Positions 1 to 35,053 of a stretch of DNA of 64,000 nt are shown here, piece by piece. This DNA is from Zoroaster sp. YZ-2022 (Eukaryota > Echinodermata > Asteroidea > Forcipulatida > Zoroasteridae). The translations under genes and the position numbers were made by a program. Under the pieces are notes generated by a model. That model saw only the letters and a list, made by a program, of their open reading frames with translations, ran no database searches and was not told the DNA's origin. The stretch lies in contig CM055837.1 in assembly GCA_029582265.1 (NCBI GenBank), positions 10,677,926-10,741,925 on the forward strand. Reading direction: 5' to 3'. Each line of letters opens with the position of its first letter. The stretch's first letter is position 1.

Positions 1-213
<213 letters not shown>

Positions 214-12051: not shown

Positions 12052-12089
12052 TTAATGTAAAAATTACTTGGTGTAAATTAGCCTTTAGT

Positions 12090-13551: not shown

Positions 13552-13559
13552 GCAACTAC

Positions 13560-14576: not shown

Positions 14577-14580
14577 TTAA

Positions 14581-15330: not shown

Positions 15331-15454
15331 AAATTCAGGGTTGCGCAGTTGTCCGGGGCAACCTTAAGTTAGATATGTTAGTTTGTCACAGTGTGTCAAC
15401 TGTTTTGGTAACCATTGTAAACACTTACTGTACTCAATTCACATACATTATATT

Positions 15455-15730
15455 GTTTTAAGCTGGTTACCTTCCTACATAGCTGAACGTTTGTGGAAAG
15501 TAGCTTTAGTGGTCAAAATCAATACATTGTCTGTTTTTGACTGTTGAACCAACTGTGCACACAGGGGCATTGTTGACTGGTTTTGACTGTCATTTTAAAC
15601 CTCCCTCAGGCCTCAACATTACCAGACAATGCTTTCACCAGTCAAAAACAGTCAATTCATTTTGGCCTGTAAATGTACTTACTACACATTATAAGGTTTG
15701 ACAGTGCACTAGATATACATCGGCATGTAT
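15455..15730 (-). mobile_element. CCCTCCTA-family mini-element, truncated inverted copy
   Basis: The GTCAAAA-word interior of the 24351-24659 element is present in reverse orientation. The left end reads TTCCTACATAGCTG instead of the canonical CCCTCCTA and the right end fades near ATATACATC. It is an older, broken copy. Confidence 0.65.
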
Positions 15731-16368
15731 ACATGTATATAGAAATTTTGATTGATTTTTGTACCTTGCAGAAATAAAGGAAACAGGTACAGTTAATGAA
15801 AACTAAGCAATGTGTTGATCCCTTGATTTTCCAACATTCACATTCTGTATCTTATTCTATTTATATAAAAAACCTCTTTCTTTGGCTTTCAATATTGTAA
15901 CAAATATTTATATTGAATGCATTACATGTACATTGGAATGGCAATGAAAATGAGTACTCTATGAGTACAAGATTACTACACTGTTTGCTGCACTTAGATG
16001 TCAAATCCATGGATTGTAATTTGTCCTTGCTCATCTAAAAAAAAAAAAAAAAAAAATATGCATATATAGTTTATGTTGAGCCATATGGCATTAGGTGACC
16101 TTGAATCAAAAGTTGAAGGTACATGTATACTATGTGTCAATGTCAAATGAACCTTACACACTTTTATGGTTTTTTGATGTTTTGCAAAGCAGACCTTATG
16201 GTTGACCTGTGGACCACTGTAGTGTTAAAGAGCCAATGGAGTAAACGTAACATGCAGCTCTGTCATCTTGTTGACATCATTTGAATTTGCCAATTTGTGG
16301 GCATTTTGGTCCATTTTTAGGGCACATTTTGGTATTTACATGTGTGCTATTATGATATTGGTCGCACA
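15731..16368. other. Unassigned stretch with poly-A run
   Basis: Contains a poly-A run at about 16037-16057. No exon was recognised. Confidence 0.4.
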
Positions 16369-16372
16369 TTAA

Positions 16373-16611
16373 CCCTAACCCCCTAGGCACTCGAGCTAGG
16401 AACCTTCCTGAATCCTCCAAAATTCATCGGTGTACTTTTGGAAACATGCCCTTATCTTCAGAATGCACCATGCATTTTCGTTGATATTTCATATTCAGCA
16501 CTTACTGCCTGTACTTCTTGCCAGGTAGTAATTTTGCCCCATTTGAACAGTGCTGAATTTTCCCCAAAAAGTGCCCCTTGGAGGATTTTGCAGGATTTGG
16601 GGTGGTTAGGG
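16373..16611 (+). mobile_element. CCCTAAC-end mini-element
   Basis: The element starts CCCTAACCCCCTAGG after TTAA (16369-16372) and ends GGTGGTTAGGG before TTTTAA. It is the least rearranged copy of the family that also occurs at 8846-9490, 47382-47687 and 49951-50291. Confidence 0.75.
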
Positions 16612-16618
16612 TTTTAAT

Positions 16619-17212
16619 CAGGGATGCCAGTTTTCCGGCTATTGCCGGAATTCCGGCTTTTTCATATTTTTCCCAAAGAAATCCGGCACTCCGTCTTTCG
16701 TCCGGCCGGGGAAAAAAATCACCTTTACAGAGTACGCTCAGTTAGTCTTGGTTATCAAGATGTTCTTACCTTTTCTTTTTTTATGCCATCGCGTAATACA
16801 CTCGGACATTTCACCGACAGAGGGCGATCGATAGTAGCGAGATAACAAGCAAGACTAGCCCATTGCTCCGCCATATTGGAAACAGTGCGTGTGGGTCCGT
16901 GTAGCATGTGTGTTGTATGCGGTGTGTTGTACACATGGTGATTGCAACGTAATCATAAAGATTATGCGTTATGCCTTCATTTTCTGAAATTTTTGACTGA
17001 TTTTACTCAACTTGACTACCATAACGGAGGTCGGAAGAGGTGTAGATCTGGAAAAAATCGATGCTAGTGTAAAGAACAGCTTCAATTAGCATTGGCTTGA
17101 ATAAAAAAAAAACAATGAGGGACATTTGTTTTTGTGTGCAAGTATGAACGTTCGCTCTTCCTTTGCGGGAATTTTTTTCCGGCTCTGGAGCAAAGAGCTA
17201 CTGGCATCCCTG
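16619..17212. mobile_element. CAGGGATGCCAGT-end DNA transposon, 6-bp duplication
   Basis: Perfect 13-bp terminal inverted repeats CAGGGATGCCAGT and ACTGGCATCCCTG bound a 594-bp element. The directly flanking hexamer TTTAAT is identical on both sides (16613-16618 and 17213-17218). Just inside the left end are repeated CCGGAATTCCGG-type words. No transposase ORF is present. It is related to the element at 31865-32671. The ends resemble hAT elements, but hAT normally makes 8-bp duplications, so the superfamily is left open. Confidence 0.85.
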
Positions 17213-17394
17213 TTTAATATAGAGAATGATTTAATTCACAAATTTTGCATGTTAATGCTGAAATATTTTTGAGGCCATTTAAAAAAATAATTTACATGGG
17301 CAAAAAAGAAAAAAAAAGAGGAAAAAAAACAAAAAACACCATCCTTGGAGAGCACTCTCCTTTTTTTTCCCTCCAAAATCTGAGTAATTTGCTT

Positions 17395-17755
17395 AGCTCA
17401 TGCGGCAACCTGGAACACAATGCCCGAAAAAAAAGACCATGCACGTGAGTGGCGAAGCAGCAAGCGACTTTTCCCAAGGACGCTACTACTGCATTATTCA
17501 ATCATAAACCTGCAGCAAAATGAATAATGTATGTATGCAAATTTATTTTAACCAATCACCGTAAGCAAAATGTTGTGCTCGTCTGTATATAAATAAGTGA
17601 TACTAGAAGAAATTAGTTACCTCATGCATTATGTATTAACATATAAAGAAAAACGTAAGACCACAGAATGGACTGGTAAAGGCCCTCGGGGCATCTGCTT
17701 CTCACGCGCTGGTCTTTTTTTCCTGTGTTGTGTGCCGTGTTGCTGCGTGGTGGGC
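17395..17755. mobile_element. Element G, near-complete MITE
   Basis: The left end, CTCATGCGGCAACCTGGAAC, is mirrored by the right end containing GTGTGCCGTGTTGCTGCGTG. The interior (CATTATGTATTAACATATAA) matches 12090-12400 in reverse orientation. Non-coding. Confidence 0.7.
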
Positions 17756-17764
17756 CTTGACTAA

Positions 17765-18081
17765 CCCTCCTACTATAGCTGAACTGTAGTGGCAGGTAGC
17801 TACAGTGGTCAAAACCAGTCAACTGCCCGTTTTGACTGTTGACCCAAATGTGCACACAGGGGCATTTTTGACTGGTTTTTTTACTGTCATTTTGACCACC
17901 CTGAACAATACAAGACCATGCTTTTACCAGTCAAAAACGGTGGACTCATTTTGACCTGTAAATGTACTTACTACACGTAAGGTTTGATAGTGTTTGAATT
18001 TTAAGTGCACTAGATACAATGTATACCTTAACAAGTATATCAACATTTTGACTGATTTTGACCCGTGCAGTAGTAGGAGGG
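17765..18081 (-). mobile_element. CCCTCCTA-end mini-element, inverted copy
   Basis: The element starts CCCTCCTACTATAGCTG after CTAA and ends AGTAGTAGGAGGG before ATAA. The interior is the GTCAAAA-word family in reverse orientation relative to 24351-24659. Confidence 0.8.
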
Positions 18082-19482
18082 ATAAACACTACAAGCAAAA
18101 TTGTTCACTGCACTTCTGATGTCATAGCGGAATCACATGCAAGACCATGGTTGGTTCGGGCATACAGTGTTGACTGAATTTCTGTTCGTTTTACAAGTCA
18201 GTTCTCTAAATAGGATATATGTATTTAACAACCCCCCAAAAATTATGGTTTATAATATCGCCACGCTCTAGAAATATGCCAAGGATCAACTGCTCATCCC
18301 TTTAGTTTTAACTTCCTAAGACCTCAAAACGAGGTCATGTGTTTCCATTGTTTTTAGGTAGTTTCACACCATTGCAAGGCCACTTGCATTACGTCTAATT
18401 CCCAGAATTAAGTTTGCCCTTCTATAAAGTCTGTTGGAGCACAACACTTAAATCATGCGACCATCCCAGGCCGTGTTTACCACAGGCTCGGCAACCTCAT
18501 TCCCACAGCTTAATTTTGAGCAGTATCAGGAATTCTCGATCAGATCTTGATTACTCCTCTTCTTGAAACTGGATGATTAAAATATCAAAAACTCTATTTA
18601 AAAAAAAAAGGGTTATTGAAGGCCATGGGTTTTGTGTTACAGTCTGGCACATTAACTATACTGCAAAGATAGTGTGTTCTGCAGTAAAAGGTGTCTAGGG
18701 GACTAGACCGACCAATTTTCCAGTCCCATGCATTGCAGGAAGAGCCTTATTTTGTCATAATTCGATGAGTTCCGAGTGCATTATTTTTTCGGTGAAATCA
18801 ATCATCCAAATGTTGGTCATGTTAAAAAAAAATATAAAAAAAGAGAAAAAAGAGAAAAACATCTAGATTGTCATGATAGAAATTTTCAATTTTGAATATT
18901 TAAACTAGTAATAAACATTTAACCAATCAGCATTGGAGTAATCACATTTCCCATTAGTCTAGTAGTGAGAACAAGGTAGACCCTGGGGGATAAGGTTGTA
19001 GTTCCTGGTCCTCTTCAGGAATTAGCAGATGTCATCCCTAATGCCCTTTGACCTTCGACCTGTCACAGTTAATCATTTCAGCCAAGGCTCCTAGTAATAT
19101 TATATGATTAGATGGTTTTAATCGTGGACTTGTATCTGCCCTGCAAGTTAATCTTCTCTGAGGCAGCACCAAAGACCTGCCCATCCCTGCGCTGAGCAAT
19201 CCTTCTAGAAAAGGACTGGAAGTACTGTCTGCAAGTAGCAAGGACATTATATAATCCCATTCCATTATGCTGTCATTCCAAATATACTTCTAGTATAAAC
19301 TTTATACTTGTCAGAGCTTTTAACAAGCACTCAGTATTGTGCTGGTTGTGAGTTTATATTTTTTAACCGATTTGGGAATTTTCAAAACGAGGTGTCCAAA
19401 ACCCGCCGAAAGCTGTATTTGATGGCTAATATTATGAGCTGTAATCAGTGTCTTAGCCAGGATTTGTTTCAGTTTGTGCACT
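18082..19482. other. Unassigned stretch
   Basis: No DDX10-like exon and no clear repeat was recognised. The part around 18900-19000 (AACCAATCAGC, TAGTAGTGAGAACAAGGTAGA) loosely matches 1790-1870 in inverted form. Confidence 0.4.
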
Positions 19483-19486
19483 TTAA

Positions 19487-19811
19487 CCCTCCTACTGCTG
19501 GTACCTTTTTCATACAAGTTGATGCACCATTTGAAACCATTCGCTTTTGTGGTTTTGAATGGTGAAATAACTGTACAGTATTAATTCCCCCAAATGGTTT
19601 TGAATGGTAGGTCAGCTAATACAAAACCTTGTTCGGACACTTCTAATAAGTGGTGAATCAATGGACCCTCTATGCATTTGAATGGATTTGAATGGTAGTA
19701 AAGCTTGCTACCAACACTGTTCAAATGGTATCACCATGTGTGTACAAAACCAATGGGCATTTTGGTAAGTGGAAATTTTGAATGGTTTCAAATGGTCAAA
19801 CAGTAGGAGGG
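19487..19811. mobile_element. CCCTCCTA-end mini-element, GAATGGTTT interior
   Basis: The element is flanked by TTAA on both sides (19483-19486 and 19812-19815), starts CCCTCCTACTG and ends CAGTAGGAGGG. Its interior is unrelated to the GTCAAAA family and is built from TTTGAATGG/CAAATGG words. It lies less than 120 bp upstream of a DDX10 exon. Confidence 0.8.
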
Positions 19812-19929
19812 TTAATAGAAGCTGATTTTTGTGTTTAATTTTCAGAAATGAATCGCATTTTACTATTGTAATGTGAACATAGACAAATCTGTTTGTTAAA
19901 TGATCCCTGTTTTTTTGCCCCAACTTCAG

Positions 19930-20050
19930 GACGTGAAGAGTGAGATGGAGCGAATAACCCGCACGAATATAGTGGTGTGCACCCCTGGCAGATTTCTTCA
20001 GCACCTCGATCAGACTGTTAGCCTGGAATGCTCAAATCTACAGATACTTG
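19930..20050 (+). CDS. DDX10: DDX10 visible exon 1
   Basis: Encodes [21 protein letters not shown] and onward, i.e. motif Ib (TPGR). The acceptor is CAACTTCAG and the donor G/GTAAAG. It ends one base into a codon. An upstream exon must supply the ...GGK that precedes this point in the family. Confidence 0.93.
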
Positions 20051-23000
20051 GTAAAGGTTTTCTGCCCCACCCCCCTTCAAAAAATAATAATAATTAAAAA
20101 ATTTTTTTTTACAAATTTGAAATAAATTAATTTAAACAAGTTAAAACAAATGAAAATAAAACAAATAAAAATTAACAAACAAAAATATTTCCTGCAATCA
20201 AATAATCATGTAAAATCTGTTGTTTTTTAATCCATTCATATTAAATTTGGATAGAAATTGTCCAAAGGATGTTCCACTGTTTTCAGCATTTATTGAATTG
20301 AAACTTCCCAAGGTCCAAAGGTCCTTTTCTGTAAATGTTTCTTGATGTTGTGACATTTATTAACTTAAACAACAAATGTCTCTGAGAGGTTTTACTAATG
20401 AAAATTGTTGTTTAGGTAATTTTTGTTGTAATGAAGTAGACCATCTTACATGTACATGTAGTTATCGTTATTTTTTGTCATGTATGCATGTGATGTTTTC
20501 TTAATTTTTCGAGTTGAAAGCCCAAGAAACAACGTTGCAAAAATGTTGCTTTTTATTCACTGTAATTCAAGGTTGCTTGCATCATCAGAAAGTCAATATT
20601 TAGACAGATCGTAGTCGAACTCATGCAATTAACCTAATTAAGGTATGCTGACAGCTGATATGTAACATACATGTACAGTTTGCAGTGGAAGACAATGTTG
20701 AAGCTTTCAGGAAACTGAAGAGGGCGCTATTTGCTTTTAACACTGTGTGAGTTACAGAGAGTTTATCCATCTTCAATGGAGTGCTGTCGTGATGTTATTT
20801 TATGTATAGAAGTAGCCTGTATTGTGTCCAAACCTCTTGCTTCTTGATTGTGGGGATGTGGAGAGTCTGTAAATCCTCCAAAACTAAACATCCAGGAGGT
20901 TCAGGGGGCTTGGTCCTCTAGACCAAAGGGAGACCCAGGCCCGCTACCCATTTTTCAGGATTTTATTTACCTTTGTCAAGTCACACAGAAAGTCACACCT
21001 CAGAATCTTTTCAGCTATAAGCCTCTCTGCCATGATGTTAACGTTTAAGTTCTTATATTAATAATCAGTGCAATTCTTTCCTACTCTGCTTTTGGAATAA
21101 AATAAGAAATTAAAAATGTTCTTCATAAGTTTTTGTCTTGTTTTCAGTTCTTGACGAGGCAGACCGCATCTTAGATCTTGGGTTTGAGAAGACCATGAAC
21201 GGCATCTTGGAGAACCTCCCCACACAGCGGCAGACGATGCTCTTCTCGGCGACACAAACCAAGTAAGCCAGACATCAGGATTGTAATTTCTCGGGATTTA
21301 TCCTGATTTCAGGATTTTGAATAAATATAATTTCAGGATTTTTTTTTCCAGAATGCATGAGTTAGTACTTTTGGAAGCAAAGGCAGCCCTCAGATCCCTC
21401 CCTAACTGTCCAATCACACCCCCGAGACATTTCCTATTGAACATGTTTTAAGGAAGGCTGCTCATTTGTACAGCTCTTTTCAGTGGTGTAATTTTTTTCT
21501 TAAAGGTGAAGGGGGGCGGGGGAATGATTTGAAATATCAGTGACTTCTCCCTAATTGTCAATATCCCCTCACCCCCTCAACATCCACCCCTACCCAACGC
21601 CAACCGCTCCCCTACCCAACACCAACCGCTCCCCTACCCAACACCAACCGCTCCCCTACCCAACACCAACCGCTCCCCTACCCAACACCACTACCACCCG
21701 CCTGAATAAATAAAATGTGAGTTTGACATATTGAGATTCAAGCAATTTTAGGGGTGTGATTTGTCCGGATTTTGGGATTTTTACAAATCCCAATGTTGTA
21801 ATCGTCCGGATTTTAAAGATTTAAGCAATAAAGGAAAGCAAAGCAAATGCTCAGAACTATAGATTTCACCCCAGCGCTGTTCACAACAGCGGTCCTAATA
21901 CCCCTAGCAAAATTTACATGGATTTTTCAAAACTGCCCAATTACACCCCTGCAACTTGTATAATCATCGAGAACAATTTTAAAGCACCATTGACAAGCCA
22001 CTTAATGTTTTTTTTAGCAATAAATTCCGTCGTCTTGATTTCTTTATTTATCATTCAGGTCCGTACGGAATTTGCCATTGGACTTACTTTTTAGTAAAAA
22101 GTTATGTCGTATTCATTTCTTTATTTATCATTCAAGTCCGTACGGAATTTGCCATTGGTCTTACTTTTTAGTAATAAGTTATATCGTATTCATTTCTTTA
22201 TTTATCATTCAGGTCCGTACGGAATTTGCCATTGGACTTACTTTTTAGTAATAAGTTATGTCGTATTCATTTCTTTATTTATCATTCAAGTCCGTACGGA
22301 ATTTGCCATTGGTCTTACTTTTTAGTAATAAGTTATATCGTATTCATTTCTTTATTTATCATTCAGGTCCGTACGGAATTTGCCATTGGACTTACTTTTT
22401 AGTAATAAGTTATGTCGTATTCATTTCTTTATTTATCATTCAGGTCCGTACGGAATTTGCCATTGGACTTACTTTTTAGTAATAAGTTATGTCGTATTCA
22501 TTTCTTTATCATTCAGGTCCGTACGGAATTTGCCATTGGTCTTAACTTTTTAGTCATAAGTTATATCGTATTCATTTCTTTATTTATCATTCAGGTCCGT
22601 ACGGAATTTGCCATTGGACTTACTTTTTAGTAATAAGTTATGTCGTATTCATTTCTTTATTTATCATTCAGGTCCGTACGGAATTTGCCATTGGACTTAC
22701 TTTTTAGTAATAAGTTATGTCGTATTCATTTCTTTATTTATCATTCAGGTCCGTACGGAATTTGCCATTGGACTTACTTTTTAGTAAAAAGTTATGTCGT
22801 ATTCATTTCTTTATTTATCATTCAAGTCCGTACGGAATTTGCCATTGGACTTACTTTTTAGTAATAAGTTATGTCGTATTCATTTCTTTATTTATCATTC
22901 AGGTCCGTACGGAATTTGCCATTGGACTTACTTTTTAGTAATAAGTTATGTCGTATTCATTTCTTTATTTATCATTCAGGTCCGTACGGAATTTGCCATT

Positions 23001-26000
23001 GGACTTACTTTTTAGTAATGAGTTATGTCGTATTCATTTCTTTATTTATCATTCAGGTCCGTACGGAATTTGCCATTGGACTTAACTTTTTAGTCATAAG
23101 TTATATCGTATTCATTTCTTTATTTATCATTCAGGTCCATACGGAATTTGCCATTGGACTTACTTTTTAGTAATAAGTTATATCGTATTCATTTCTTTAT
23201 TTATCATTCAGGTCCGTACGGAATTTGCCATTGGTCTTACTTTTTAGTAATAAGTTATATCGTATTCATTTCTTTATTTATCATTCAGGTCCGTACGGAA
23301 TTTGCCATTGGACTTAACTTTTTAGTAATAAGTTATATCGTATTCATTTCTTTATTTATCATTCAGGTCCGTACGGAATTTGCCATTGGTCTTACTTTTT
23401 AGTAATAAGTTATGTCGTATTCATTTCTTTATTTATCATTCAGGTCCGTTAGGGATTTGGATTTGGACTTACTTTTTAGTAATAAGTTCCATCATCTTGA
23501 TTTATTTATTTATTGTTCCGGTCCGTTCAGGATTTAGCTTTGGACTTATATTTTTTAGTAATAAGTTCCATCTTCATTTATTTATGTATCAATCAGGTCC
23601 GTGAGGGATTTGGCCAGGCTGAGCTTGAGGGATCCTAAGTATGTATCCGTCCATCAACATCATGAATACAGCACCCCAGCTCAACTGGAACAGGTAGGCG
23701 TTTACAAAATCCAAGAGATTTGTTGAATGTGGTGTTAATGATATAAGATAATAGGCTTTGTATGGTGGAGTATTGCTATAGTTTGGGTTTGTGGTAACAC
23801 CATGTGTTTATCTCAACTGTAAAGTGAGGTACATGTTCTGAAAGGAACCTTATGAATCACCTGACGATGATTAGAGCATGCTAATCGAAATATAGAGAAG
23901 ACCCTGTGAAATTACACACGGTTCTCTACGAACCACGCTCTCACATAGCAAAAGTTGAGAAACGAGTTGCCCGATATTGGTTCTACCCTGAACCATAATC
24001 TCACTAATAGCGACAATTGAGTTGTAAGTTGTGCGATAAGGTTCCTTTCAGAACCTGCACCTGACTTTAGCGATAGTTGAGATGAACACACAGTGTTGCC
24101 GCAAACTGAGACGATATGTGCTGTGAATGCTTGTTTGATTCACTGCAGTTAAAGACAGAAAACGCTTCTGGTAAAATGCCTGTAAATGCATCAACGTTTA
24201 TTTTAGTTTATTTGTTTCCAAATGTGAAATTTGCCAATTTGTGTATGGAGGTGCCAAGTCGAAAAGCAAGGCTTATACGAGACCAGGCACCGTGTATAAA
24301 AATACATGTTGGAGAAAAATATATTACATGACATTTTGATGGATTATTAACCCTCCTACTACTACAAGGGTCAAAATCAGTCAAAATGTTGATATACTTG
24401 CCAAGGTATATCTAGTGCACTTAAAAGTCGAACACTGTCAAACCTTATGTGTAGTAAGTACATTTACAGGTCAAAATGAGTTGACCGTTTTTTGACTGGT
24501 AAAAGCATTGTCTTGTATTGTTCAGGGTGGTCAAAATGACAGTAAAAACCAGTCAAAAGTGCCCCTGTGTGCACATTTGGGTCAACAGTCAAAATAGACA
24601 GTTGACTGATTTTGACCTCTGTAGCTACTTCCCACTAAAGTGCAGCTACAGTGGGAGGGTTAATGATATTAGGTTGAATGTATAAGGTTAAATTGTTTGA
24701 CAAAGACAAAAATGTTTGAATGTTAACAAAAAGTCTTAGGGCAGTGTAAAATTTTTGTAAATGAATCCATACTTTATAAGTTTCAGTGTAGTTCATAAAT
24801 GTCATTGTAAAGAAGATTATTTATACTGCCTTTACAATTCTACGGCCAATTTTTAGGGCTGGCAAAGGAACAAGTTACTTGGAAATCATTAGACAAAAGC
24901 CCATAGATATGTGGTATTCTTCAAAAGCCTCTGACCTAGATATTGACGAATGAGTTGATTGTAGTTAAGGTTGAATCCGAATCACCTACTTTGACATCAA
25001 CTGCTAGCTAATAGATCTTGGCCCAATTTCGTAAGGCCGCTTAACAGCTGAATTTTTGCTTACTGTACGTTTTTTTATTATTTCATAGCGCTGCTAACCG
25101 TTAAGCATAGAGAAAGGCACGCTAACTTTGCCGGCCGTTATTACTAGCAAATGAGTGACGCAACAATACAAATCCATGGTGAACGCGCACGCGCCACTCT
25201 GAATATTCTTGTTAACCTGTGAAATACGCTTAATGCTTAAGCAAATTTGTCTGCTGTAATTAGCACGAAAATTTGCTTACCGGTAAGCGGCGCATGAAAT
25301 TGGGCCCAGATTAACAGCCCCCCCCCCCCCATCTTTACTGGCTATGGCAACACACAATGAAACTCACAAATACGTATAACGTGCGAACACCAATCATCAA
25401 ATTGCATGCATCAGTAGTGGATGAAGTGTCATCATCGTTAACGTCATTCTCACTTCGACAGCTCTCGTCCGTCACGCTGGCCGACCTTGGCCAAGCTGAC
25501 CGCCTTATCTCAAGGTGGGATTAAGCTCTGTGTTGGTTCGGCCGTTTGACGGAGCCGGGTTTAGGTCGAGGGCATCATTCTCGATCTTCTCCAGCCCAAG
25601 TGCGTGTAGTTGACACCTTCCTTGACCTAATTGCAACACTCAGGGACTTATTTGCTGGGAGTCGGGATGACATGCATAGAAAAAATTTTATAATGCGAAA
25701 TTAAATCAACCGAGTTCTTGAAAATGGCATCTATTTAAAAAAAAACACCTCTATATATTAATGGGAGTGTCTTTGCTTGTCTTGTCTCTGCAGAGCTTAG
25801 TGGTTTGTGAACTGGACCAGAAAATTGATCTTTTGTACTCGTTCATTCGCAACCATACCAAACAGAAGGTACTGGTGTTCATGGCTAGCTGTAAACAGGT
25901 ACACGTATGATATACTTGCATTCATTCAAGGAAGACTGATTTTGAAAATGTTGATTTTAAACCTGTGGTTTAGAATGCTGAGACTTACAGGGGGAAAATG

Positions 26001-29000
26001 TTGAAAAAGCACTATTTTAAGGAGAGGGGGGTGGGGGCTCAAAAAGATGTTGATAAGTTTGGGTAGCTACTACCCAAGGATTGCAAAAATATCCTTAGTC
26101 TCCCACACTCAATTCCATATTCTGACCCAATGGTTATATTGGTACAGGTTTATAAGTTTATCTGCCCAACATCCATGTCATTACAAAGTCTGGAAAACGT
26201 CAGACATGGATTCATCTTTAAGGGGACAATATCGTCACGATCAGAGCAGACTTTCGACAGGTCATGGAAGTGGTGTCCTTGTGTTAAGGTGGACACAGTG
26301 ACTGTAAATTACTGGCTCATTTATGCAGCAGCAACGGTAAAATGACCTTATCATATTTTCAGTGACTGATTAAATCTAAAACTAGCACTCCGATTCCATG
26401 CCCTGTTGATTGTGGCAATACTGTCCCTTTAATGTACTACAAAAAAATAAATTGAGTAAAAAAAGTCAACAGAGTTGAAGTGTGGCTGTATGGAATCACA
26501 CCATTATTTATCACACAATACTCCATTAGTATTATTATTTTCCCCATTAGGTTAAGTACACGTTTGAAGTGTTTTGTGCTCTCCACCCTGGTGTTACTGT
26601 CATGGCCCTCTACGGAACCCTGCACCAACTGAGGAGAGTAGCCATCTACACTGAATTCTGTAATGCCAAACACGCTGTGCTCTTTGCGACAGATATCGCC
26701 GCTAGAGGACTTGGTAAGTTGTTGTAGAAAGCCAGAGACAAAGCGATGCTTCAATGCCACTTCATGATCTTATAAGGGATAGTATTGTTACAGTCAGAGC
26801 AGGCTTTCAACAGGGCATGAAATCAGTGTCCTAGTTGAATTCAGAGACTGAAAATTACTGTCTCATTTATGCAGCAGCAACGGTAATATGACCTTATCAT
26901 GTGGGGTGTTATTGTCAGTCACTGAGTTAATCTAAAACTAGCACTCTGATTCCATGCCCTGTTGATCGTGATAATATCATATTCTCATTTTAAAAAGTGT
27001 AAATAATCACATTTTTACATGAAACTTGGTGTAAATTTGATTATGTATCAAACATCCCTTGAAATATTTCTGTCGGAGGTCATTTTCGTAAAAATAAATA
27101 TAATGAGTTCAAAATTTGTAGAATGCATGAGAATTTGTGAAAGTTACAGCTAATTTCATTTTGTAATAAAGGAGAAAACGGTGAAAATTCATTCAGACAT
27201 GTGTGTGACAGTATGAAAATCATGTTTCAAACATGCCCACACATGGCATACACATTGCACTGGTACACATATAAACATAACACGCACTTAAATTTGATCG
27301 TTGATTGGTTTCTTCAGAAAAACAAACGGGGGAAAAAAAAACAAAAAAACAGTTGAATGAGATTACAAGATATCCACGACATTTGTGGAAGTCCTCGACG
27401 TCGTGAGCTTGCCCTCGGTCGACGTTACTGCACAAAGCTGTCACAGACGTTTTGTCCCAAGAAACGGGAAATGAGTCCGGTCAAATGGAATCGGCTTGCT
27501 ACATGTAGGAGTCAACCAAAAAACTGTGGCTTGAGACTGACTTGACTCACTCAAACTCTAGTTGCTCAACAACAACAAAATTGAATTTTTTTTCCTAATC
27601 TTAACTGTTTTTTTTTTCAACATGCAGATTTTCCATCGGTCAACTGGGTGCTACAACTGGACTGTCCCGAGGATGCAAGCACCTACATCCATCGGGTCGG
27701 CAGGACGGCACGGTACGAGCAAGGAGGTGAGTCTTTGCTCATCCTCCTGCCGTCTGAGGAGGAAATGGTGAAACAACTGGTGGAGAGAAAGATACCCATT
27801 CAGAAAATCAAGTAAGTGAACGATGAAATCGATGGAACTCAAATCACCGAAGAGTAGATGTTTTTGCTTCATGCTTTGTTTTGGCTTTTGTTGGCCAGGA
27901 AACGAAGATAAAAGGCCAGGTCTTTCTTCTGATATTGGTTTTTTGTATTTTTTTGTTCAATCTATCAATAAATTGATTATTGATAAGAATATTTTCAATA
28001 ATTCATCTGCTTTGTAATGTTGAATAACATTGCATCTGCTTCAATTCACAGATCGTTCTGTTGATGTCATTATTTTTCCCTATGTTTTTTTTTTCAGGGA
28101 AGTTTTTCAGGGACTGTTTCTACATTCTTCACCTTTTTTTCAAATTCAGAAAAACTTAAATAATCTCCTAAGAGTTTCAAATTCAGAAAACCTTAAAGAG
28201 ACAATATCGTCATGATCAGAGCAGAGTTTCAACAGGGCATGGAATCCGTGTCTTACTTTAAGATGAACACAGTGACTGAAAATTACTGGCTCATTTATGC
28301 AGCAGCAACGGTAATATGACCTTATCATGTGGGGTATTATTTTCAGTCACTGAGTTAATCTCAAACTAGCACTCTGATTCCATGCCCTGTTGATCGTGGC
28401 GATACCCTCCCTTTAAATAATGTCCTTTTTTTTCATACTTCAGTGTGAATCGAAATCGTAAGATGAGTATACAGAGTAAACTGCAGTCTCTCTGTGCCGG
28501 CAGTATCGATCTCAAGCAATCTGCCCAACGCTGCTTCATCAACTACGTCAAATCTGTCTACCTCATGAAGAACAAGAAAGTGTTTGACGTCACCAAGCTC
28601 CCGCTGGAAAAATACTCATTGTAAGTGCCCACTCTGTCCATATCATAGCCCTCTACTGCTGAAAATGCACCCGGTCACCAAGTGTGGGGCACGCTCCCCC
28701 ACACCCCCTGCGTCTTGGTTTGATTCGGACTGTGCTTTTGTTTCCCACAGCTCACTGGGGCTTGCCATCCCTCCGCGAGTCAGGTTCCTCCAGCGAGCTG
28801 CCAAAAGGAAAGACGAACACCAGATGATAAAGCAAGGAAAGAACGCCAATGATCTCGAGTCCAATAAGAAAACGGGTAAGTAAATCTCACAGACTTTAGT
28901 AAAGAAGGCAGTTGTATTGTAAGGTGTGCATTGGTTTCAGACGCGGTTGAGATAATCAACTGATGAATCTTAATGACTGAGTTAGCGAATGGAAGTGCAG

Positions 29001-32000
29001 AATACCACACCTAACCACATGCCAGTCATTTAAAAGTTTTTTGAGCTTACTAAGATGTGACGGCAAATCTTGGTATTGCATGACACATAAATGTGGGATC
29101 GTAGTGGGATTGTCAGTAGCCTGTGCAGGCCTGGAACTTACTTATTCCTTTTCCTGAGTACTTCCATAACAATATCAGAATGGCTATGGGAACTTTTTTC
29201 AGGGGCACGAAGGCCAAGACCAGGGCAACGGAGGCAGAAGCCTCCATGGAATTCTAGGGCTGCTGTAGCCTATAGTGAGTCAGCTGTTAATGAACTGGGA
29301 GAACCATTGTTCTTGTGTTAATAATAATAATACTAACCCTCCTACTACTGCAAGGGTCAAAATCATTCAAAATGTTGATATACTTGCCAAGGTATATCTA
29401 GTGCACTTAAAAGTCGAACACTGTCAAACCTCACGTGTAGTAAGTACATTTACACGTCAAAATGAGTCAACCGTTTTTGACTGGTAAAAGTGTTGTCTTG
29501 TATTGTTCAGGGTGGTCAAAATGACAGTAAAAACCAGTCAAAATGCCCCTGTGTGCATATTTGGGTCAACAGTCAAAACAGGCAGTTGACTGGTTTTGAC
29601 CACTATAGCTACTTACCACTAAAGTGCAGCAATAGTAGGAGGGCTAATGAACAGTTCTTATATAGCACATAATACCTTCCAATGAAAGTCTCTATGTACT
29701 TATTATTTGCCCTGGTCACTGGGCCAATATCATTCCTGGTCACTGGGCCAATATCATTCCTGGTCACTGGGCCAATATCATTCCTGGTCACTGGGCCAAT
29801 ATCATTCCTGTAATCTTTCTCAGCTCCCTGGGGAGTATACAGCCCATTATGTGCAACCATTTTTGGCACTACAGGGCTAATCAAACACAATTACCACCTC
29901 TACCCTCACAGGTACCCATTTATACTCCTCGGTGAAGAGAAGCAATTACAGTTAAGCGTCTTGCTCAAGGACACAAGTACCATGGTCGCGGCTGGGATTC
30001 GAACCCACATTCTGACGACTCAGCCATCAGAACATAAGTCCGATATACCAGATCGCTCGACCATGACACCCCACTCAAGACTTTACCATAATTGCTAAAC
30101 CATGCCACCCTATAGAATGTTGTTCATTGCTAAGGTTTAGTCTATTAACTTTCATTAGTTGTCCTTTTACTTTCACTCTTCCATTACTAGTTCTGAAACA
30201 GCGTGAGAGAGGTTCAGACTTAGAGATCTTAGAGACAGAGGAAACAGGCGGCGTGGATGATGGAGGTCTAGACGCCATCGTGGCGAAACTCAGATCAACC
30301 ATGCCGCAGAGAATGAAGGGCGGAGCTAACATCAAACCACTATCAAGACCAAAGGAGGATGACCAGGAGTTGGAAGAAGAACTGGGCAGCATGGGTGACG
30401 GAGGTCTGGACGCCATCGTGGCAAAGCTCAGATCAACCGCGCCGCGGAGGATGAAGGGTGAGGCTAACGTCAAACCAAGAGTTAGACAAGAGGAGTTGCC
30501 AGATGAAGAGGATCGGGAAGAAGAGGAGACAAGACGGGATGATGATGAAGATGAAGAAGATGCTGAAGATGATGATAAAAAGGATTCATCCTCATCAAGA
30601 AAGGCAATGGCTGTTTCCAGAACACATGGAAAAACACCTGCGAGTAACACAAGAACTTCCAATGAGTCCAAGAACACTTCAAATGAAAAGAAAGCAGCAT
30701 TGAATAAGAAAACGGAAAGAATCGGTCGATTGCAATCTCAGAAATCGAGTGAAACAGTCAGCCAATCGCATTTGAGATCTCGTTCTAGTGTTGCGGATTC
30801 CCACCCTTCAGAATCAAGCTCTGGGGAGGATTCTGACGGTGAGTTGCAGGAAAAAGAAGACGGGCCAGGCTTCCAAGGAGGAAATGATGAGGAAGAAGAG
30901 GACGATTTTCTTGTTGTCAAGAAGAAAGATGTCTTTGGTATTAAGAAGGAGGAACCGGTAAGAAATGGCTGTAATTTCTACCATTTCTTTAAAAAAAAAT
31001 TTTTTCCTGTCACATGCTGAACATGTCATCTATAACATTTCAGTTGAATAAGGTTTATTTGGCTTGTACATCCCAAAATTGTATTATCAGTTTGTGTTTC
31101 TGTGAGTTAGGTTTTACATTCTATGGATATTGTACGTGTGGTACATGCTTATTGGCATTGCATTGCGCTGTTGATGACTTGAACTGTTTGTTACAAGATG
31201 TGCTGTGAGTGACTACAAACAATGTGGGATGTTTCTTTGCGAGTTTGGTAAAAAAATGTACATGAAATGGTCTATAGAATGGTCTTTAGCATTTCGAAAG
31301 ATCGATTCAATTTGCATTTAGCATCAGACAGCAGCAAAAGGTAACAGTAGTTATCTGCATGCATTTCGTAATAGCACAGACATTTTTTGTACACTATACT
31401 TTGGCTATTTGGCTATTCAACCTTGTGAAATTGTCCACTTTTTTCCCCATTACAGAAGCAAAGAAATCCTGAAGCGGAAACTATAGAGGGCGCTAAGAAA
31501 TCCAACAAGCCGAAGAAGCAACCCAGCAAAGTAGCCATGGCTAAGAAACTACACCGATTGAAAATAGCAGTCAATACCAAGAAGACGTTTGATGAGGAAG
31601 GGGAGGTAATGAATTATTCATTTGACACTCGTCATTATTCATATTCATGCATGTTTATTCATTTATGCAAATTGAATGCACGATAACAATCAGTTTCTTG
31701 TCTTTAATGAGGGAATGAAATGCAGTTATTCATCTCATTGTGTTCTATAATTATACCAACCATAACAGGAACCATGGTTATTTTTAGGTGAATTTACAAT
31801 TTTATTGTTGATTTGTTTCATACACTCAGCAGGAAAATTAATTTCATGTACACTGTTTGAATTACAGAGATGCCACTTTTCCGGTTTAAACCGGAATTCC
31901 GGTTATCTCCCCAAAATCCTTTTTTTTTCCAGCCGTCCATTCATAAAAAGAGCGGAGGAAAAAAAAGGAAACGGAAATTTATTATTACTATTTTGTTCGC

Positions 32001-35000
32001 GTCTCGAGAGCTCGACGTACGACAGCAGCGCAGCAGTAATTTCAGTAGCCTTGATTTCGAGGCTTATCCCGCGAACGCCTGCCGACTACGTGTATGTATG
32101 TAACGAGCGCATGATGAACCTGGTTCGTCTTCGTATGTATGCTGTAGTGGTAAGCGAAGTTATCACACACAGCCTTGAAATCAAGTCTATGATTTCATGC
32201 GTCGGTGGTTTTCGATCGCAGTCTTCATATCAAATACTCTACATTACTCGCCGGGTACCAACCAAGTCCTTGTCACATGACCATCTGAGACTAGGCAGGC
32301 CGAGTTGTCTAACACATGTACATGTATGCTGAAGCGATACACATTGAAACTTGGTTTTCGTAAATTCTGTCAAAGCATGGAGGAAGAGTGAGGCCATTCT
32401 CTTCGGGACAATTCAAAGAACGGACAGTTTGAAGACAATTGAGGCGAAGGTTAAAAATAAATTTGTTGCTGACATTTTTCATAAATGTAACATTTATTCT
32501 GTGTAGTAGTTGACAGGAGAGCCTTCCATAAGGCCTAGAAAGGCTAAAATTCATGAGCTGCACCCCGGTCGATACACGTTACGCTTGCGACGTTCGCTCC
32601 GCGGCTATGAGTATTTGTCACAATGATAATAAATTTCCATATTTTTTTTAGCCAACGCAGTGGCATCTCTGGAATTACATGACAAATAAAATGTTGAATA
32701 TAATTTAAATAAGTTATTTTATTTTAGGTAAAACTTGTAGCTTTGCATGGTGAGGATGATAAGTAAGACTAATTGCGGTGACACCATGTGGAATCTCAAT
32801 TGAGTAGTAATTAGTTATGAAAAGAACTGGTGGTACAACTCGACGTTTCGATCAGTATGCTGGCAAAATTGGAGCCAGCAGGGACATGTCGTTTAATATA
32901 CATGTTCATTGTTAAGTTTTATAAATTATTTTAATTTAGATGGTTAGAAGGGTACATGTTTCATGTGGGTTCCCGGTTTGCCACAGATTCTTTGTTCTCG
33001 TGTCCGTAGAGAGTGGTGGCAAAATTGGAGCCAGCAGGGACATGGGTCCGTTTAATATACATGTTTTCGTTTTATCCACTATGTGTTTAAATCGTTCTTT
33101 GTGTCTTTATATGTCTTCTGTTCCTTATTGTGATGTAATGTCTGGTTGGTTTTGTCTTTTGTGCTTAAAGGACCCCATTAGAAATAAGTCGCAAGACTTT
33201 TATGGGCTATCCTGATATTACCGCCTTCATGTGCAATTTAAATTTATTTATGTTTTTATTTGCTTATTTATTGTGTGTATTTGTAATTTATTTTGAATGG
33301 TGATATCAAATAAAACATAAACATAAACATATGCTCTGATCGTCCTCAGGAGAATGCCGGACTCTGGAAAATGCTGCTGCTGATCGAAACGTCGGGTTGT
33401 ACCACCAGTTCTTTTCAGAACTAATTACTACTCAATTGAGATTCCACATGGTGTCACTGCAATTAGTCTTACTTATTTTATTTTGTTACAAAATATTTTA
33501 TTTTGCTACTAAATATGTGAATACTTATTTATTTTATAAAATAAAAATCAAGGAATGCTTAGTAGAATTAATATCATCAAGGTAAAACTTGTAGCTTTGC
33601 ACAGTGAAGAGGATATTAAAGTAAAGACTAATTTAAAGGAGAAGTAAAGACTAATCCTCCAGCATCCAGTCTTCGCATGATCCTCCAGCAGCCTACTTAA
33701 GCAGCAGCATTTCCCAGAGTCTGGCATTCTCCTGAGGACGATCAGAGCATACTGATCGAAACGTTGAGTTGTAACCTCCAGTTCTTTTCAGAACTAATTA
33801 CTACTCAATTGAGACGTCACATGGTGTCACCGCAATTAGTCTTTATGACTATCATCAAGCAGAACAAATAATGTATGTGGGAAAAAAACATTTAAATTAT
33901 CGCTTAAGGGTACAGGAGTTCTTCCATTTACTCTTTAACACACAAGAGTCAGACAGTTAATCCTGTGCAAAGTGGTCTTAATGGACAGGTGGCCTCAATT
34001 TTGCGTAGTGTCAACCAACGGCTGGCCACATTGAGCAGGTGGCCTCTTTATCCAGGCCACAGAAGCAGGTTGATTTTCAGAAGTGTTACTTGATCATCAA
34101 ACCAATCTGTTCCTAGGTTACCAAGCAGTGGCCGCCACTCCCTAACACCGCCGATCCAAACGAGGGCGGTATTGATATTGAGAAGGCCAAGGAGTGGATG
34201 AGAGAGGAGGACCAGCATGATAAGGAGGTGTACCGAGAGCGTATCAGGGCCAAACATAAGGTGAGACTATCTCGGGTTGCTGGGGGAGGGCAACATTTGA
34301 AAAGAGCGAGTTGATGACAATTGGGGAAATATATTCAACCTACATGTTCACTAGATTGCTAAATGTTTTCTTTTAACCGCAATCAATTGACTTTGATTTG
34401 AAAATTGTGTTTTCTTCCTGTGTTAGGCTGAGAGACTGAGGGCAAAGGAGGAACGACGGAAATTATCGAGACGAGGAAAACGAGAGGAATCGGACGATGT
34501 AAGTTTATAAAGCAATATTTTGGAAGCAACTAGTAACATGAGCTTTCTCCGGGCAAATTGAATTCAGTTAGTGATGGCCATAGTAATGATTACAATAAAA
34601 TAAAAAAACACTGAAGGGCACAAAAATTGCATTTTGATTTCACGTTAAAGAATCACTTTGTCTGACCAGTGCCAATTATTGATATGTTTTTTATTCCAGA
34701 ATGAGGACATAGGTGCAGCTCTTGACCTCGGCGATGGATATGTGCCCTTTGACCCCGACACGCTGCCAGACCCCGACAAATATGCGGAAAAGAGCGAGAC
34801 CAGTGACGACGCAGAAGCGGAGAAACCGCCCAAGAAGGCTAAGAAGAAGACGAGAAAGGAATTCACGGAGAAGACGCCCTCAAAGAGGAAAGCAAAGTCA
34901 GAGGAGAAAGAGAGAAAACAGAGCGGCAAGAAAAAACGAAAGACAGGAGAGGGAAAAGAGGGGGGTAGGATGGACAAGTCATTCGATACAGGATTGACGT

Positions 35001-35053
35001 TACAAGACGACGAGGAACTGGCATTACATATTCTATCGAGTAATCAGTTTTAA
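19930..35053 (+). CDS. DDX10: DDX10-type DEAD-box RNA helicase, 3' 13 exons (5' part not seen)
   Basis: The gene encodes an ATP-dependent RNA helicase of the DDX10/Dbp4 family, which acts in the nucleolus in small-subunit ribosome biogenesis. Thirteen exons join in a single frame with GT-AG borders and consistent phases: 19930-20050, 21148-21262, 23597-23693, 25794-25898, 26551-26713, 27628-27811, 28444-28620, 28751-28875, 30191-30957, 31456-31605, 34117-34260, 34427-34498 and 34700-35053. The visible 857 residues carry TPGR (18-21), DEAD (43-46), SAT (74-76), [10 protein letters not shown] (192-201) and HRVGRTAR (222-229). A long acidic/serine/lysine-rich tail follows and ends in the family-typical [17 protein letters not shown]. 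Human DDX10 is about 875 residues, so roughly 185 N-terminal residues (Q motif, Walker A, PTREL) are missing from what I can see. The introns are loaded with repeats, including a satellite made of the exon-3 acceptor. Confidence 0.95.
20051..21147 (+). other. DDX10 intron with family B repeat
   Basis: Contains an A/T-rich run at 20080-20190 and dispersed repeat family B at 20808-20965. No additional exon was seen. Confidence 0.6.
20808..20965 (+). repeat. Dispersed repeat family B, copy 2
   Basis: Matches 3010-3290 through GTGTCCAAACCTCT, GGAGAGTCTGTAAATCCTCC and AAAGGGAGACCCAGGCC. Confidence 0.75.
21148..21262 (+). CDS. DDX10: DDX10 visible exon 2 (DEAD and SAT motifs)
   Basis: Encodes [13 protein letters not shown] with the Walker B DEAD box, then MLFSATQTK (motif III). 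The acceptor is TTTTCAG and the donor AA/GTAAGC. The split AA plus G of the next exon codes lysine. Confidence 0.95.
21263..22021 (+). other. DDX10 intron, left part
   Basis: Holds TTTCAGGATTTT-type fragments of repeat family B (21290-21350 and 21750-21910) and a tandem array at 21577-21700. The 77-bp satellite begins at about 22022. Confidence 0.6.
21577..21700 (+). repeat. 22-bp tandem repeat, CCAACCGCTCCCCTACCCAA
   Basis: About five head-to-tail copies of a 22-bp C-rich unit with core CACCAACCGCTCCCCTACCC, degenerate at both edges. Confidence 0.9.
22022..23596 (+). repeat. 77-bp satellite made of the DDX10 exon-3 splice acceptor
   Basis: About 20 tandem units of 77 bp each contain TTTATTTATCATTCAG followed by GTCCGTACGGAATTTGCC. 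The authentic junction at 23597 reads TTTATGTATCAATCAG then GTCCGTGAGGGATTTGGCC. It lies exactly 77 bp after the unit at 23520, which is itself 77 bp after 23443, so the real exon start is in register with the array. The two units nearest the exon (GTCCGTTAGGGATTTGG and GTCCGTTCAGGATTTAGC) are intermediate in sequence, while the centre is homogenised. Copies near 22135, 22289 and 22825 read CAAG instead of CAGG at the junction. The units alternate in part as 154-bp dimers. Confidence 0.93.
23597..23693 (+). CDS. DDX10: DDX10 visible exon 3
   Basis: Encodes [20 protein letters not shown] and ends STPAQLEQ, matching the linker between the two RecA-like domains. The donor is CAG/GTAGGC, phase 0. 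Its first ~20 bases are the source or relative of the satellite immediately upstream. Confidence 0.95.
23755..24108. repeat. Foldback element D, diverged copy
   Basis: Inverted arms with GAGGTACATGTTCTGAAAGG and CCTTTCAGAACCTGCACCTG flank a centre containing TGACGATGATTAGAGCATGC. Related to 9050-9412. Confidence 0.7.
24351..24659 (+). mobile_element. CCCTCCTA-end mini-element, complete copy
   Basis: Flanked by TTAA at 24347-24350 and 24660-24663. It starts CCCTCCTACTACTACAAGGG and ends CTACAGTGGGAGGG. The interior is a run of imperfect GTCAAAATGA/CAGTCAAAA words with no ORF. Confidence 0.85.
25019..25309. mobile_element. GGCCCAATTTC-end MITE
   Basis: Inverted ends GGCCCAATTTCGTAAGGCCG and GGCGCATGAAATTGGGCCC are continued by GCTTAAC/GTAAGC words. 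The interior is non-coding. Confidence 0.7.
25794..25898 (+). CDS. DDX10: DDX10 visible exon 4
   Basis: Encodes [20 protein letters not shown] and [10 protein letters not shown] (motif IV region). The acceptor is CTCTGCAG and the donor CAG/GTACAC. Phase 0 at both ends. Confidence 0.94.
25899..26550 (+). other. DDX10 intron with MITE
   Basis: Contains one AGGGACA-end MITE (26222-26428) and otherwise unassigned sequence. Confidence 0.6.
26222..26428 (+). mobile_element. AGGGACA-end TTAA MITE, copy 3
   Basis: Starts GGGGACAATATCGTCACGAT after TTAA and ends CAATACTGTCCCT before TTAA (26429-26432). Confidence 0.85.
26551..26713 (+). CDS. DDX10: DDX10 visible exon 5 (motif V)
   Basis: Encodes [20 protein letters not shown] and, at its end, [12 protein letters not shown]. 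The usual LHG before the Q..R segment reads LYG here. The donor is G/GTAAGT. Confidence 0.95.
26714..27627 (+). other. DDX10 intron with MITE
   Basis: Contains a diverged AGGGACA-end MITE at 26774-26985; the rest is unassigned. Confidence 0.55.
26774..26985 (+). mobile_element. AGGGACA-end MITE, diverged copy 4
   Basis: Conserved interior CAACAGGGCATGAAATCAGT and GCAGCAGCAACGGTAATATG. Its ends are mutated and TTAA flanks are no longer evident. Confidence 0.75.
27628..27811 (+). CDS. DDX10: DDX10 visible exon 6 (motif VI)
   Basis: Encodes [20 protein letters not shown] then [10 protein letters not shown] with the arginine finger motif, and ends IPIQKIK. The acceptor is CATGCAG and the donor AA/GTAAGT. 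Confidence 0.96.
27812..28443 (+). other. DDX10 intron with MITE
   Basis: Contains an AGGGACA-end MITE at 28197-28412 shortly before the next acceptor. Confidence 0.6.
28197..28412 (+). mobile_element. AGGGACA-end TTAA MITE, copy 5
   Basis: Starts AGAGACAATATCGTCATGAT after TTAA (28193-28196) and ends GATACCCTCCCT before TTAA. Confidence 0.85.
28444..28620 (+). CDS. DDX10: DDX10 visible exon 7
   Basis: Encodes the segment with [20 protein letters not shown] and [13 protein letters not shown], conserved in DDX10/Dbp4 C-terminal to the helicase core. The donor is TT/GTAAGT. Confidence 0.95.
28751..28875 (+). CDS. DDX10: DDX10 visible exon 8
   Basis: Encodes [20 protein letters not shown] and a lysine-rich stretch. 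The acceptor is TTTCCCACAG and the donor G/GTAAGT. Confidence 0.95.
29124..29268. mobile_element. Probable short MITE, CAGGCCTGGAA ends
   Basis: Approximate inverted ends CAGGCCTGGAACTT and GGAATTCTAGGGCTG enclose a 145-bp segment containing GGCACGAAGGCCAAGACCAG. No duplication was confirmed. Confidence 0.45.
29337..29643 (+). mobile_element. CCCTCCTA-end mini-element at a CTAA site
   Basis: Starts CCCTCCTACTACTGCAAGGG and ends AATAGTAGGAGGG, with CTAA on both sides (29333-29336 and 29644-29647). A non-TTAA site duplicated on both flanks is good evidence that the 4 bp are a true target duplication. Confidence 0.85.
29650..30076 (-). mobile_element. tRNA-type SINE, copy 1
   Basis: Read on the minus strand, the element begins near 30075 with GTGTCATGGTCGAGCG (A-box-like) and then GTGGGTTCGAATCCC (B-box-like), as in tRNA-derived SINE heads. 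A body with AGCAAGACGCTTAACTG and GGGAGCTGAGAAAG follows. Its tail region holds the 24-bp tandem array at 29712-29815. Further copies lie at 45858-46125 and 57141-57700. Confidence 0.8.
29712..29815 (+). repeat. 24-bp tandem repeat inside the SINE
   Basis: About four copies of GGTCACTGGGCCAATATCAT plus TCCT. The GGCCAATATCATTCCT word is a single-copy part of the SINE body elsewhere, so the array arose in place. Confidence 0.9.
30191..30957 (+). CDS. DDX10: DDX10 visible exon 9 (acidic linker)
   Basis: A 767-bp exon encoding a low-complexity acidic and serine-rich tail. It contains two direct copies, 46 residues apart, of a motif with core [13 protein letters not shown] followed by MKG.AN.KP (nt 30256-30340 and 30394-30478), and ends [19 protein letters not shown]. 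The VKKKDVFG block matches the family's C-terminal region. The donor is CCG/GTAAGA. Confidence 0.94.
31456..31605 (+). CDS. DDX10: DDX10 visible exon 10
   Basis: A 50-codon, lysine-rich exon ending KTFDEEGE, conserved in DDX10. The acceptor is CATTACAG and the donor GAG/GTAATG; phase 0. Confidence 0.92.
31865..32671. mobile_element. CAGAGATGCCACT-end DNA transposon, 6-bp duplication
   Basis: Perfect 13-bp inverted ends CAGAGATGCCACT and AGTGGCATCTCTG are flanked by identical GAATTA hexamers (31859-31864 and 32672-32677). Just inside the left end, repeated CCGGTTTAAACCGGAATTCC sequence parallels the element at 16619-17212. Size 807 bp, no transposase. Overlapping short ORFs are not protein-like. 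Confidence 0.85.
32728..33479. mobile_element. Foldback element F, split by a LINE fragment
   Basis: The left arm (GGTAAAACTTGTAGCTTTGC to GATCAGTATGC) and the right arm (TCTGATCGTCCTCAGG to AATTAGTCTTACTT) are separated by the insertion at 32861-33329. Confidence 0.8.
32861..33329 (+). mobile_element. Non-LTR retrotransposon 3' end, 5-bp target duplication
   Basis: The insertion is bounded by TATGC on both sides (32856-32860 and 33330-33334). It ends in AAATAAAACATAAACATAAA, a short A-rich microsatellite tail as in CR1-like LINEs, preceded by AGGACCCCATTAGAAATAAG and CTTTTATGGGCTATCCTG. A GGCAAAATTGGAGCCAGCAG word is duplicated at 32862 and 33017. Only 3' UTR-like sequence remains. Confidence 0.75.
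33579..33850. mobile_element. Foldback element F, further copy
   Basis: Starts AAGGTAAAACTTGTAGCTTT, passes through CCTGAGGACGATCAGAGCAT and ends with GGTGTCACCGCAATTAGTC. The left arm is partly replaced by a short CCTCCAGCATCC/CCTCCAGCAGCC duplication. Confidence 0.75.
34117..34260 (+). CDS. DDX10: DDX10 visible exon 11
   Basis: Encodes [20 protein letters not shown] and ends RERIRAKHK. The QWP block and the following IRAKH are characteristic of DDX10. The donor is AAG/GTGAGA. Confidence 0.94.
34427..34498 (+). CDS. DDX10: DDX10 visible exon 12
   Basis: A 24-codon basic exon ([20 protein letters not shown]) ending ESDD. The acceptor is TGTTAG and the donor GAT/GTAAGT. Confidence 0.92.
34700..35053 (+). 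CDS. DDX10: DDX10 terminal exon
   Basis: Encodes [12 protein letters not shown], a long lysine-rich nuclear/nucleolar-type basic stretch, and the conserved end [17 protein letters not shown] before TAA at 35051-35053. Confidence 0.96.
   Translation, partial: NEDIGAALDLGDGYVPFDPDTLPDPDKYAEKSETSDDAEAEKPPKKAKKKTRKEFTEKTPSKRKAKSEEKERKQSGKKKRKTGEGKEGGRMDKSFDTGLTLQDDEELALHILSSNQF

What the first reader, a model, noticed from the sequence alone, without database searches (positions are those of the whole stretch)
22022..23693. Tandem satellite of about 20 decoy splice acceptors in phase with a real DDX10 exon
Each 77-bp unit contains a near copy of the intron/exon border of the exon at 23597: a T-rich stretch, CAG, and then the first ~18 exon bases changed to GTCCGTACGGAATTTGCC. 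Units at 23443 and 23520 are intermediate, and the real exon start is exactly one period further on. The array therefore seems to have grown from duplication of the acceptor junction itself. The spliceosome must choose the last of about 21 similar acceptors. Use of a decoy would insert an SVRNLPLDL-type peptide and eventually a stop codon, which could tune DDX10 output.
Basis: partly seen in the sequence, partly recalled or inferred. Interest (0 to 1): 0.9.

Follow-up and report, generated by a model that had tools for sequence, protein, structure and literature searches.

The report
Tandem copies of a splice acceptor
In the DDX10 gene of what is very likely a sea star, 20 near-copies of one intron/exon border stand in a row just ahead of the real border; they likely arose by repeated duplication of that border and would make a natural test of how cells pick the right splice site.

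Summary
A 77-bp array (22011-23602) in a DDX10 intron carries 20 near-copies of that intron's 3' end plus the first ~17-20 bases of the next exon; the real acceptor is the 21st site. Sixteen copies keep CAG, three read CAA, and the nearest reads CCG. Similarity of three tested units to the real junction beats 2,000 of 2,000 shuffles each. In the 1.0-Gb genome the interior 18-mer has 17 exact matches, all here. The real exon start is conserved in DDX10, so the exon is the source and the array the copy. Edge units keep older sequence and the interior is homogenised, as expected from unequal exchange. A crude matrix scores all 16 intact decoys above the real site, and every decoy would bring a stop within 11-88 codons. 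This is the anatomy of amphioxus 'mirage' minisatellites, here in an echinoderm (host inferred from protein similarity). Most likely it is a by-product that splicing ignores because exon definition favours the 97-nt exon; a dosage-tuning role is possible but unsupported. An RNA-masking idea was tested and failed. No RNA data and no other sea-star genome could be reached. New member of a known kind.

The parts
22011..23602 (+). 77-bp tandem array, 20.7 copies by TRF; its last partial copy runs into the real exon
   Evidence: spacing
22059..23443 (+). Decoys 1-19 (first exon-like base of each from 22059 to 23444): 16 with CAG, 3 with CAA (22136, 22290, 22826)
23444..23520 (+). Unit 19: CAG acceptor, exon-like start identical to the real exon at 16 of 17 bases
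23521..23596 (+). Unit 20: acceptor AG lost (CCG); its intron-side states TTCC..CTTGATTT are shared with unit 1
23597..23693 (+). Real DDX10 exon (exon 6 of 16), 97 nt, acceptor CAATCAG|GTCC, donor CAG|GTAGGC
   Evidence: numbering
21148..21262 (+). Upstream DDX10 exon (exon 5), ends CAA|GTAAGC
21263..23596 (+). Host intron (intron 5), 2,334 nt; 748 nt of it lie before the array
19930..35053 (+). The 13 DDX10 exons that lie in the window; three more exons lie before it

Best explanation
A 20-copy, 77-bp minisatellite in intron 5 of a (likely sea-star) DDX10 gene repeats that intron's own 3' end together with the start of exon 6; it likely arose by tandem duplication of the acceptor junction followed by unequal exchange, and it is predicted to be silent because exon definition would still favour the last, real acceptor. 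Shown: the units, their similarity to the real junction, their confinement to this locus, the conserved real exon start, and older sequence at both array edges. Inferred: the first duplication spanned the boundary, and unequal crossing over or conversion homogenised the interior. Inferred: only the real acceptor lies 97 nt from the next donor, an ordinary exon size in this gene, whereas the 16 intact decoys would define exons of 250 to 1,635 nt. Inferred: any leak into a decoy gives an early stop and would be removed by nonsense-mediated decay.
For: Junction similarity above all shuffles for three tested units. The exact interior 18-mer has 17 matches in the 1.0-Gb genome, all in this array. 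Of 240 similar proteins 239 hold SATQT, 205 of them continue xS[VI]xDLARLSL, none holds the decoy peptide, so the exon side is ancestral. Unit 1 and unit 20 share four states absent from units 2-19 (190 of 200,000 random draws do as well), and the real junction shares TTCC among them; interior stretches are nearly or exactly identical. Only 1 of 30 DDX10 splice borders has nearby copies: score 70, the other 29 at 19-30. Exon 6 is 97 nt between introns of 2,334 and 2,100 nt; its donor scores 10.1 and no other donor-like site in the array exceeds 5.9. Published mirages did not disturb normal splicing in RT-PCR (passage).
Against: No RNA was available, so silence is a prediction. By a crude 12-site matrix the 16 intact decoys score 11.4-12.5 against 8.2 for the real site, which would favour decoy use if strength alone decided. 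The exon-side similarity is weak for the interior unit (5 of 2,000 shuffles) and not significant for unit 20 (69 of 2,000). The left breakpoint of the first duplication was not resolved (577 of 2,000 shuffles as good). No relative's intron was seen, so the age and order of events are unknown.
Confidence: 0.8

Rival explanations
1. The array is a splicing brake: intact decoys capture part of the transcripts, the products carry early stops and decay, and array length sets DDX10 output.
For: Sixteen intact decoys score above the real site in a 12-site matrix, and all 20 lead to a stop within 11-88 codons. Each intact unit has a branch-point-like motif at -21 or -17.
Against: No RNA evidence. Published mirages did not disturb normal splicing (passages). 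The matrix is crude: 52 of 3,584 AG sites in the window score at least as high as the real one, among them an AG at 21313 in the same intron (11.0). The nearest decoy has lost its AG.
Confidence: 0.08
2. Neighbouring decoy units pair through the palindrome TCCGTACGGA in RNA, so the decoy AGs are hidden and the real AG stays open.
For: Four units fold more stably than shuffles (z -2.85), the real junction does not (z -0.27); the exon, unit 19 and unit 20 lack the palindrome.
Against: The real AG is predicted to be paired at least as much as the decoys at 37 and 15 C. 205 of 3,000 shuffled units hold a palindrome as long, and 25 of 150 shuffled units repeated four times are as stable.
Confidence: 0.02
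3. Each decoy CAG|GT works as a recursive splice site: a decoy splice rebuilds a donor at the junction and the array is climbed until the real exon is reached.
For: Joining exon 5 to a decoy rebuilds CAA|GTCCGT (CAA|GTCCAT for one of the 20); within the array CAG|GTCCGT scores 5.9 against 6.2-10.6 for the 12 real donors.
Against: The rebuilt donor CAA|GTCCGT scores 3.5, below every real donor, and the real exon start would rebuild the same donor in every correct mRNA.
Confidence: 0.03
4. The likeness to the exon start is chance, or the array is a dispersed satellite that landed here.
For: The exon side alone is weak for the interior unit and unit 20.
Against: Whole-junction scores exceed every shuffle, the register fits the exon start within one base, and the exact 18-mer occurs only here.
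Confidence: 0.03

Closest known systems
Amphioxus 'mirage' minisatellites (Adh3; globin BflGb6 and BflGb9; PGBD5; troponin C): passages of PMC3087553 and PMC3902484; the original Adh paper is not held
   Same: Tandem units span an intron/exon border; many but not all units keep AG/GT; edge units escape homogenisation.
   Different: Here an echinoderm gene, one border of DDX10, 20 decoys of 77 bp. The passages give 6 and 3 units of 150-160 bp for two BflGb6 haplotypes and unit lengths of 10-72 bp for Adh3; the Adh3 copy number was not seen.
Human CBS c.844_845ins68 (passages of PMC2630376)
   Same: Tandem duplication of an intron/exon junction; the distal site is strongly favoured. The passage says 'donor', but the reference it cites is titled 3' splice site selection.
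   Different: One extra copy of 68 bp and a human polymorphism with RNA evidence; here 20 copies without RNA evidence.
Human CBS 31-bp VNTR c.1444_1467+7 (passages of PMC2630376)
   Same: By its coordinates a tandem array that reaches from coding sequence into the intron, 16-21 units.
   Different: It lies at a donor border, not an acceptor; any effect on splicing is recalled, not seen in a call.
Intron gain by tandem genomic duplication of AGGT (passages of PMC3443670)
   Same: Tandem copies of AG|GT create candidate acceptor and donor sites.
   Different: That model duplicates exonic sequence to make a new intron; here the border of an existing intron was copied inside it.

Membership tests
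Mirage minisatellite | Tandem units that span an intron/exon border | tested here: met
   Whole-junction similarity above all 2,000 shuffles for three units; register within one base
Mirage minisatellite | Many but not all units keep the splice signal | tested here: met
   16 of 20 keep AG
Mirage minisatellite | Interior homogenised, cluster edges not | tested here: met
   Units 1 and 20 share four states absent from units 2-19; difference matrix
Mirage minisatellite | Length instability between alleles or cells | not testable with these tools
   One assembly only; no reads
Mirage minisatellite | Normal mRNA despite the array | not testable with these tools
   No RNA; three relatives' annotated proteins show no insertion at this point, but their introns were not seen
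Mirage minisatellite | Cephalochordate host (described range in the passages read, not strictly defining) | tested here: not met
   DDX10 core 88% identical to two sea stars; amphioxus proteins 65% over 39-40% of the query
Intron gain by tandem genomic duplication | Duplicated exonic AGGT segment becomes a new intron | tested here: not met
   The copies include about 50 nt of intron and lie inside an intron of 2,334 nt
Recursive splice sites | Acceptor joined to a donor good enough to be reused | tested here: inconclusive
   AG|GT present; rebuilt donor 3.5 against 6.2-10.6 for real donors, 12-site matrix

The most novel reading that the evidence does not exclude
The array is a self-grown dosage dial: every copy added by unequal exchange adds an acceptor better than the real one, so array length sets what share of DDX10 transcripts decays, and ribosome production varies heritably between sea stars through the copy number of one splice junction.
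Probability: 0.08. Interest if true: 0.8.

Novelty: new member of a known kind. Interest (0 to 1): 0.42.

Why it matters
One natural transcript presents 17 AG acceptors of nearly the same sequence in the same phase, with three dead interior copies as built-in controls and a fourth dead copy nearest the exon. Reads from it would show whether position relative to the next donor, rather than site strength, decides 3' splice site choice. It would also carry junction minisatellites beyond the cephalochordates of the passages I read, which bears on how often splice borders seed satellites and, perhaps, new introns.

Tried and rejected
RNA masking by pairing between units: promising at four units, but the real AG is predicted paired as well, and palindrome and stability are within shuffle range; rejected. 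Left breakpoint with microhomology: a shared CCATTG between left flank and unit tail is matched by 577 of 2,000 shuffles; left open. Array as a coding or dispersed repeat: a 100-aa frame across it found no protein at E 0.01 (74 candidates), and the exact 18-mer is confined to this locus. Rfam families in the window: none at gathering score. Selection on the decoy AG: not inferable, because the CAA copies look inherited by block duplication (the stretches starting at 22059 and 22749, each ending in CAA, are identical, and the one at 22213 differs by one base). A survey of other gene borders in this genome and a search for a second copy of the junction did not complete. The first folding script timed out; it was replaced by a whole-segment partition function. 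A count was spoilt by a pattern one letter too long for the captured text and was redone.

Literature: ten searches. I saw listings; one search listed 15 of 129 papers. No listed title or abstract start described a boundary-spanning array in an echinoderm. Passages only were read of PMC3087553, PMC3902484, PMC2630376, PMC3443670 and PMC4039745. The original Adh paper is not held (one search tried a wrong DOI for it) and is known here only through passages that cite it.

Full report
What is there. The window lies on contig C22 of a 1.0-Gb genome in 616 contigs. TRF reports one array at 22011-23602, period 77, 20.7 copies. It sits in the gene for the DEAD-box helicase DDX10: the exon at 21148-21262 has human DDX10 (2pl3) as its best match among solved structures, and 13 exons with GT-AG borders join into one frame of 857 residues and a stop. 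Three sea-star DDX10 proteins align to the same exons. Their first 164 to 168 residues find nothing in the window, but three further exons lie about 13.5 to 21 kb before its first base. So the exon after the array is exon 6 of 16 and the array is in intron 5.

Host. The 362-residue DDX10 stretch compared is 88% identical to Asterias rubens and to Patiria miniata, 85% to Acanthaster planci, and 73, 67 and 69% to a feather star, a sea urchin and a sea cucumber. The host is therefore very likely a sea star; no call names the species.

The repeat is the splice border. Each unit has about 50 nt equivalent to the end of the intron, then in most units GTCCGTACGGAATTTGCC, against GTCCGTGAGGGATTTGGCC at the real exon. 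The real junction aligned with an interior unit, unit 19 and unit 20 scores 69, 80 and 67; no shuffle of 2,000 each exceeds 35. By side, the intron part carries most of the signal. The exon part is decisive for unit 19 (16 of 17 bases), weak for the interior unit (5 of 2,000 shuffles as good) and not significant for unit 20 (69 of 2,000). Sixteen of 20 decoys keep AG.

Direction of copying. The exon start is conserved DDX10 coding sequence: of 240 listed proteins from two searches, 239 hold SATQT; 205 of them continue xS[VI]xDLARLSL, 164 KSV[KR]DLARLSL; none of the 240 holds the decoy peptide. Many of the 240 are vertebrate or unnamed. The exact interior 18-mer has 17 matches in the held genome, all in this array; diverged copies elsewhere were not sought successfully (the DNA query did not complete). 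At both ends units keep an older type: units 1 and 20 share four intron-side states not seen in units 2-19 (190 of 200,000 random draws do as well), and the real junction shares the TTCC among them. Interior stretches differ little and several are identical; one (starting 22444) is a 4-nt-shorter outlier. This is what unequal exchange with sheltered edges leaves, and the same was reported for an amphioxus globin array (passage).

Is it one of many? Of 30 splice borders of this gene (25, 5) only the acceptor at 23597 has copies within about 4 kb: score 70 against 19-30 for the other 29. A genome-wide survey got no answer.

What decoys could do. Each unit has a pyrimidine tract (12-13 of 16 pyrimidines; the real site has 10) and a branch-point-like yUnAy at -21, or at -17 in unit 7. 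With a matrix from the 12 other acceptors placed in the window, the 16 intact decoys score 11.4 (15) or 12.5 (1), the real site 8.2, and the 12 others, left out one at a time, -6.7 to 11.0. Twelve sites make a crude matrix, and 52 of 3,584 AG sites in the window reach the real site's score, one of them at 21313 in the same intron. Every decoy enters in the same phase, and 20 of 20 lead to a stop 11-88 codons after the junction, inside the lengthened exon, with ten introns still downstream. Nonsense-mediated decay is the expected fate (established knowledge).

Why the last site would win. Exon 6 is 97 nt between introns of 2,334 and 2,100 nt; in such a setting exons are expected to be recognised as units (established knowledge). 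The real acceptor pairs with a donor 97 nt away (score 10.1); the nearest intact decoy would make an exon of 250 nt, the farthest 1,635 nt. Inside the array the best donor-like site, CAG|GTCCGT, scores 5.9, just below the weakest real donor at 6.2, so short pseudo-exons are possible but poor. A human precedent, the CBS junction duplication, strongly favours the distal site (passage). This step is inference; no RNA was available.

Masking by structure was my own alternative. Interior units carry a perfect 10-nt palindrome and are predicted to pair with neighbours. The idea fails its test: the real AG is predicted to be just as paired, and palindrome and stability are within shuffle range.

Known or new. 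The anatomy is that of amphioxus mirages, seen in passages of PMC3087553 and PMC3902484. The host phylum differs, and 20 decoys exceed the 6 and 3 units given for the two haplotypes of one globin gene. Ten paper searches listed no echinoderm case that I could tell from titles and abstract starts; most subscription papers are not in that library. I file it as a new member of a known kind.

Verdict. The origin is well supported; a tuning role is not. Interest comes from the natural experiment it offers rather than from a new kind of system.

Noticed in passing
window 1-19929; L010, L011: The intron between DDX10 exon 3 (in L010) and exon 4 (19930) is about 33 kb, far longer than the 12 other introns measured (130-2,511 nt).
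   Followed up: partly
5683-7994: A second large minisatellite: 29.6 copies of a ~76-81-bp unit, also read as 14.8 copies of 151 bp, inside that 33-kb intron; no DDX10 exon touches it.
   Followed up: no
21587-21690: A 22-bp, 4.7-copy C-rich array in the same intron as the decoys, unrelated in sequence.
   Followed up: no
30191-30957: The long DDX10 exon codes for a motif twice (DGGLDAIVAKLRSTMPQRMKGGANIKP and DGGLDAIVAKLRSTAPRRMKGEANVKP), a duplication within the protein.
   Followed up: no
45874-48691: Frames with astacin (two) and kringle domains on the + strand, likely exons of a secreted metalloprotease gene.
   Followed up: no
22059-23443: Interior units hold a perfect palindrome TCCGTACGGA that units 19 and 20 and the exon lack; 205 of 3,000 shuffled units have one as long, so it may be chance, but a DNA hairpin could favour expansion.
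   Followed up: yes
21313: Another strong AG (score 11.0, above the real acceptor's 8.2) lies about 50 nt after the exon 5 donor, outside the array.
   Followed up: no
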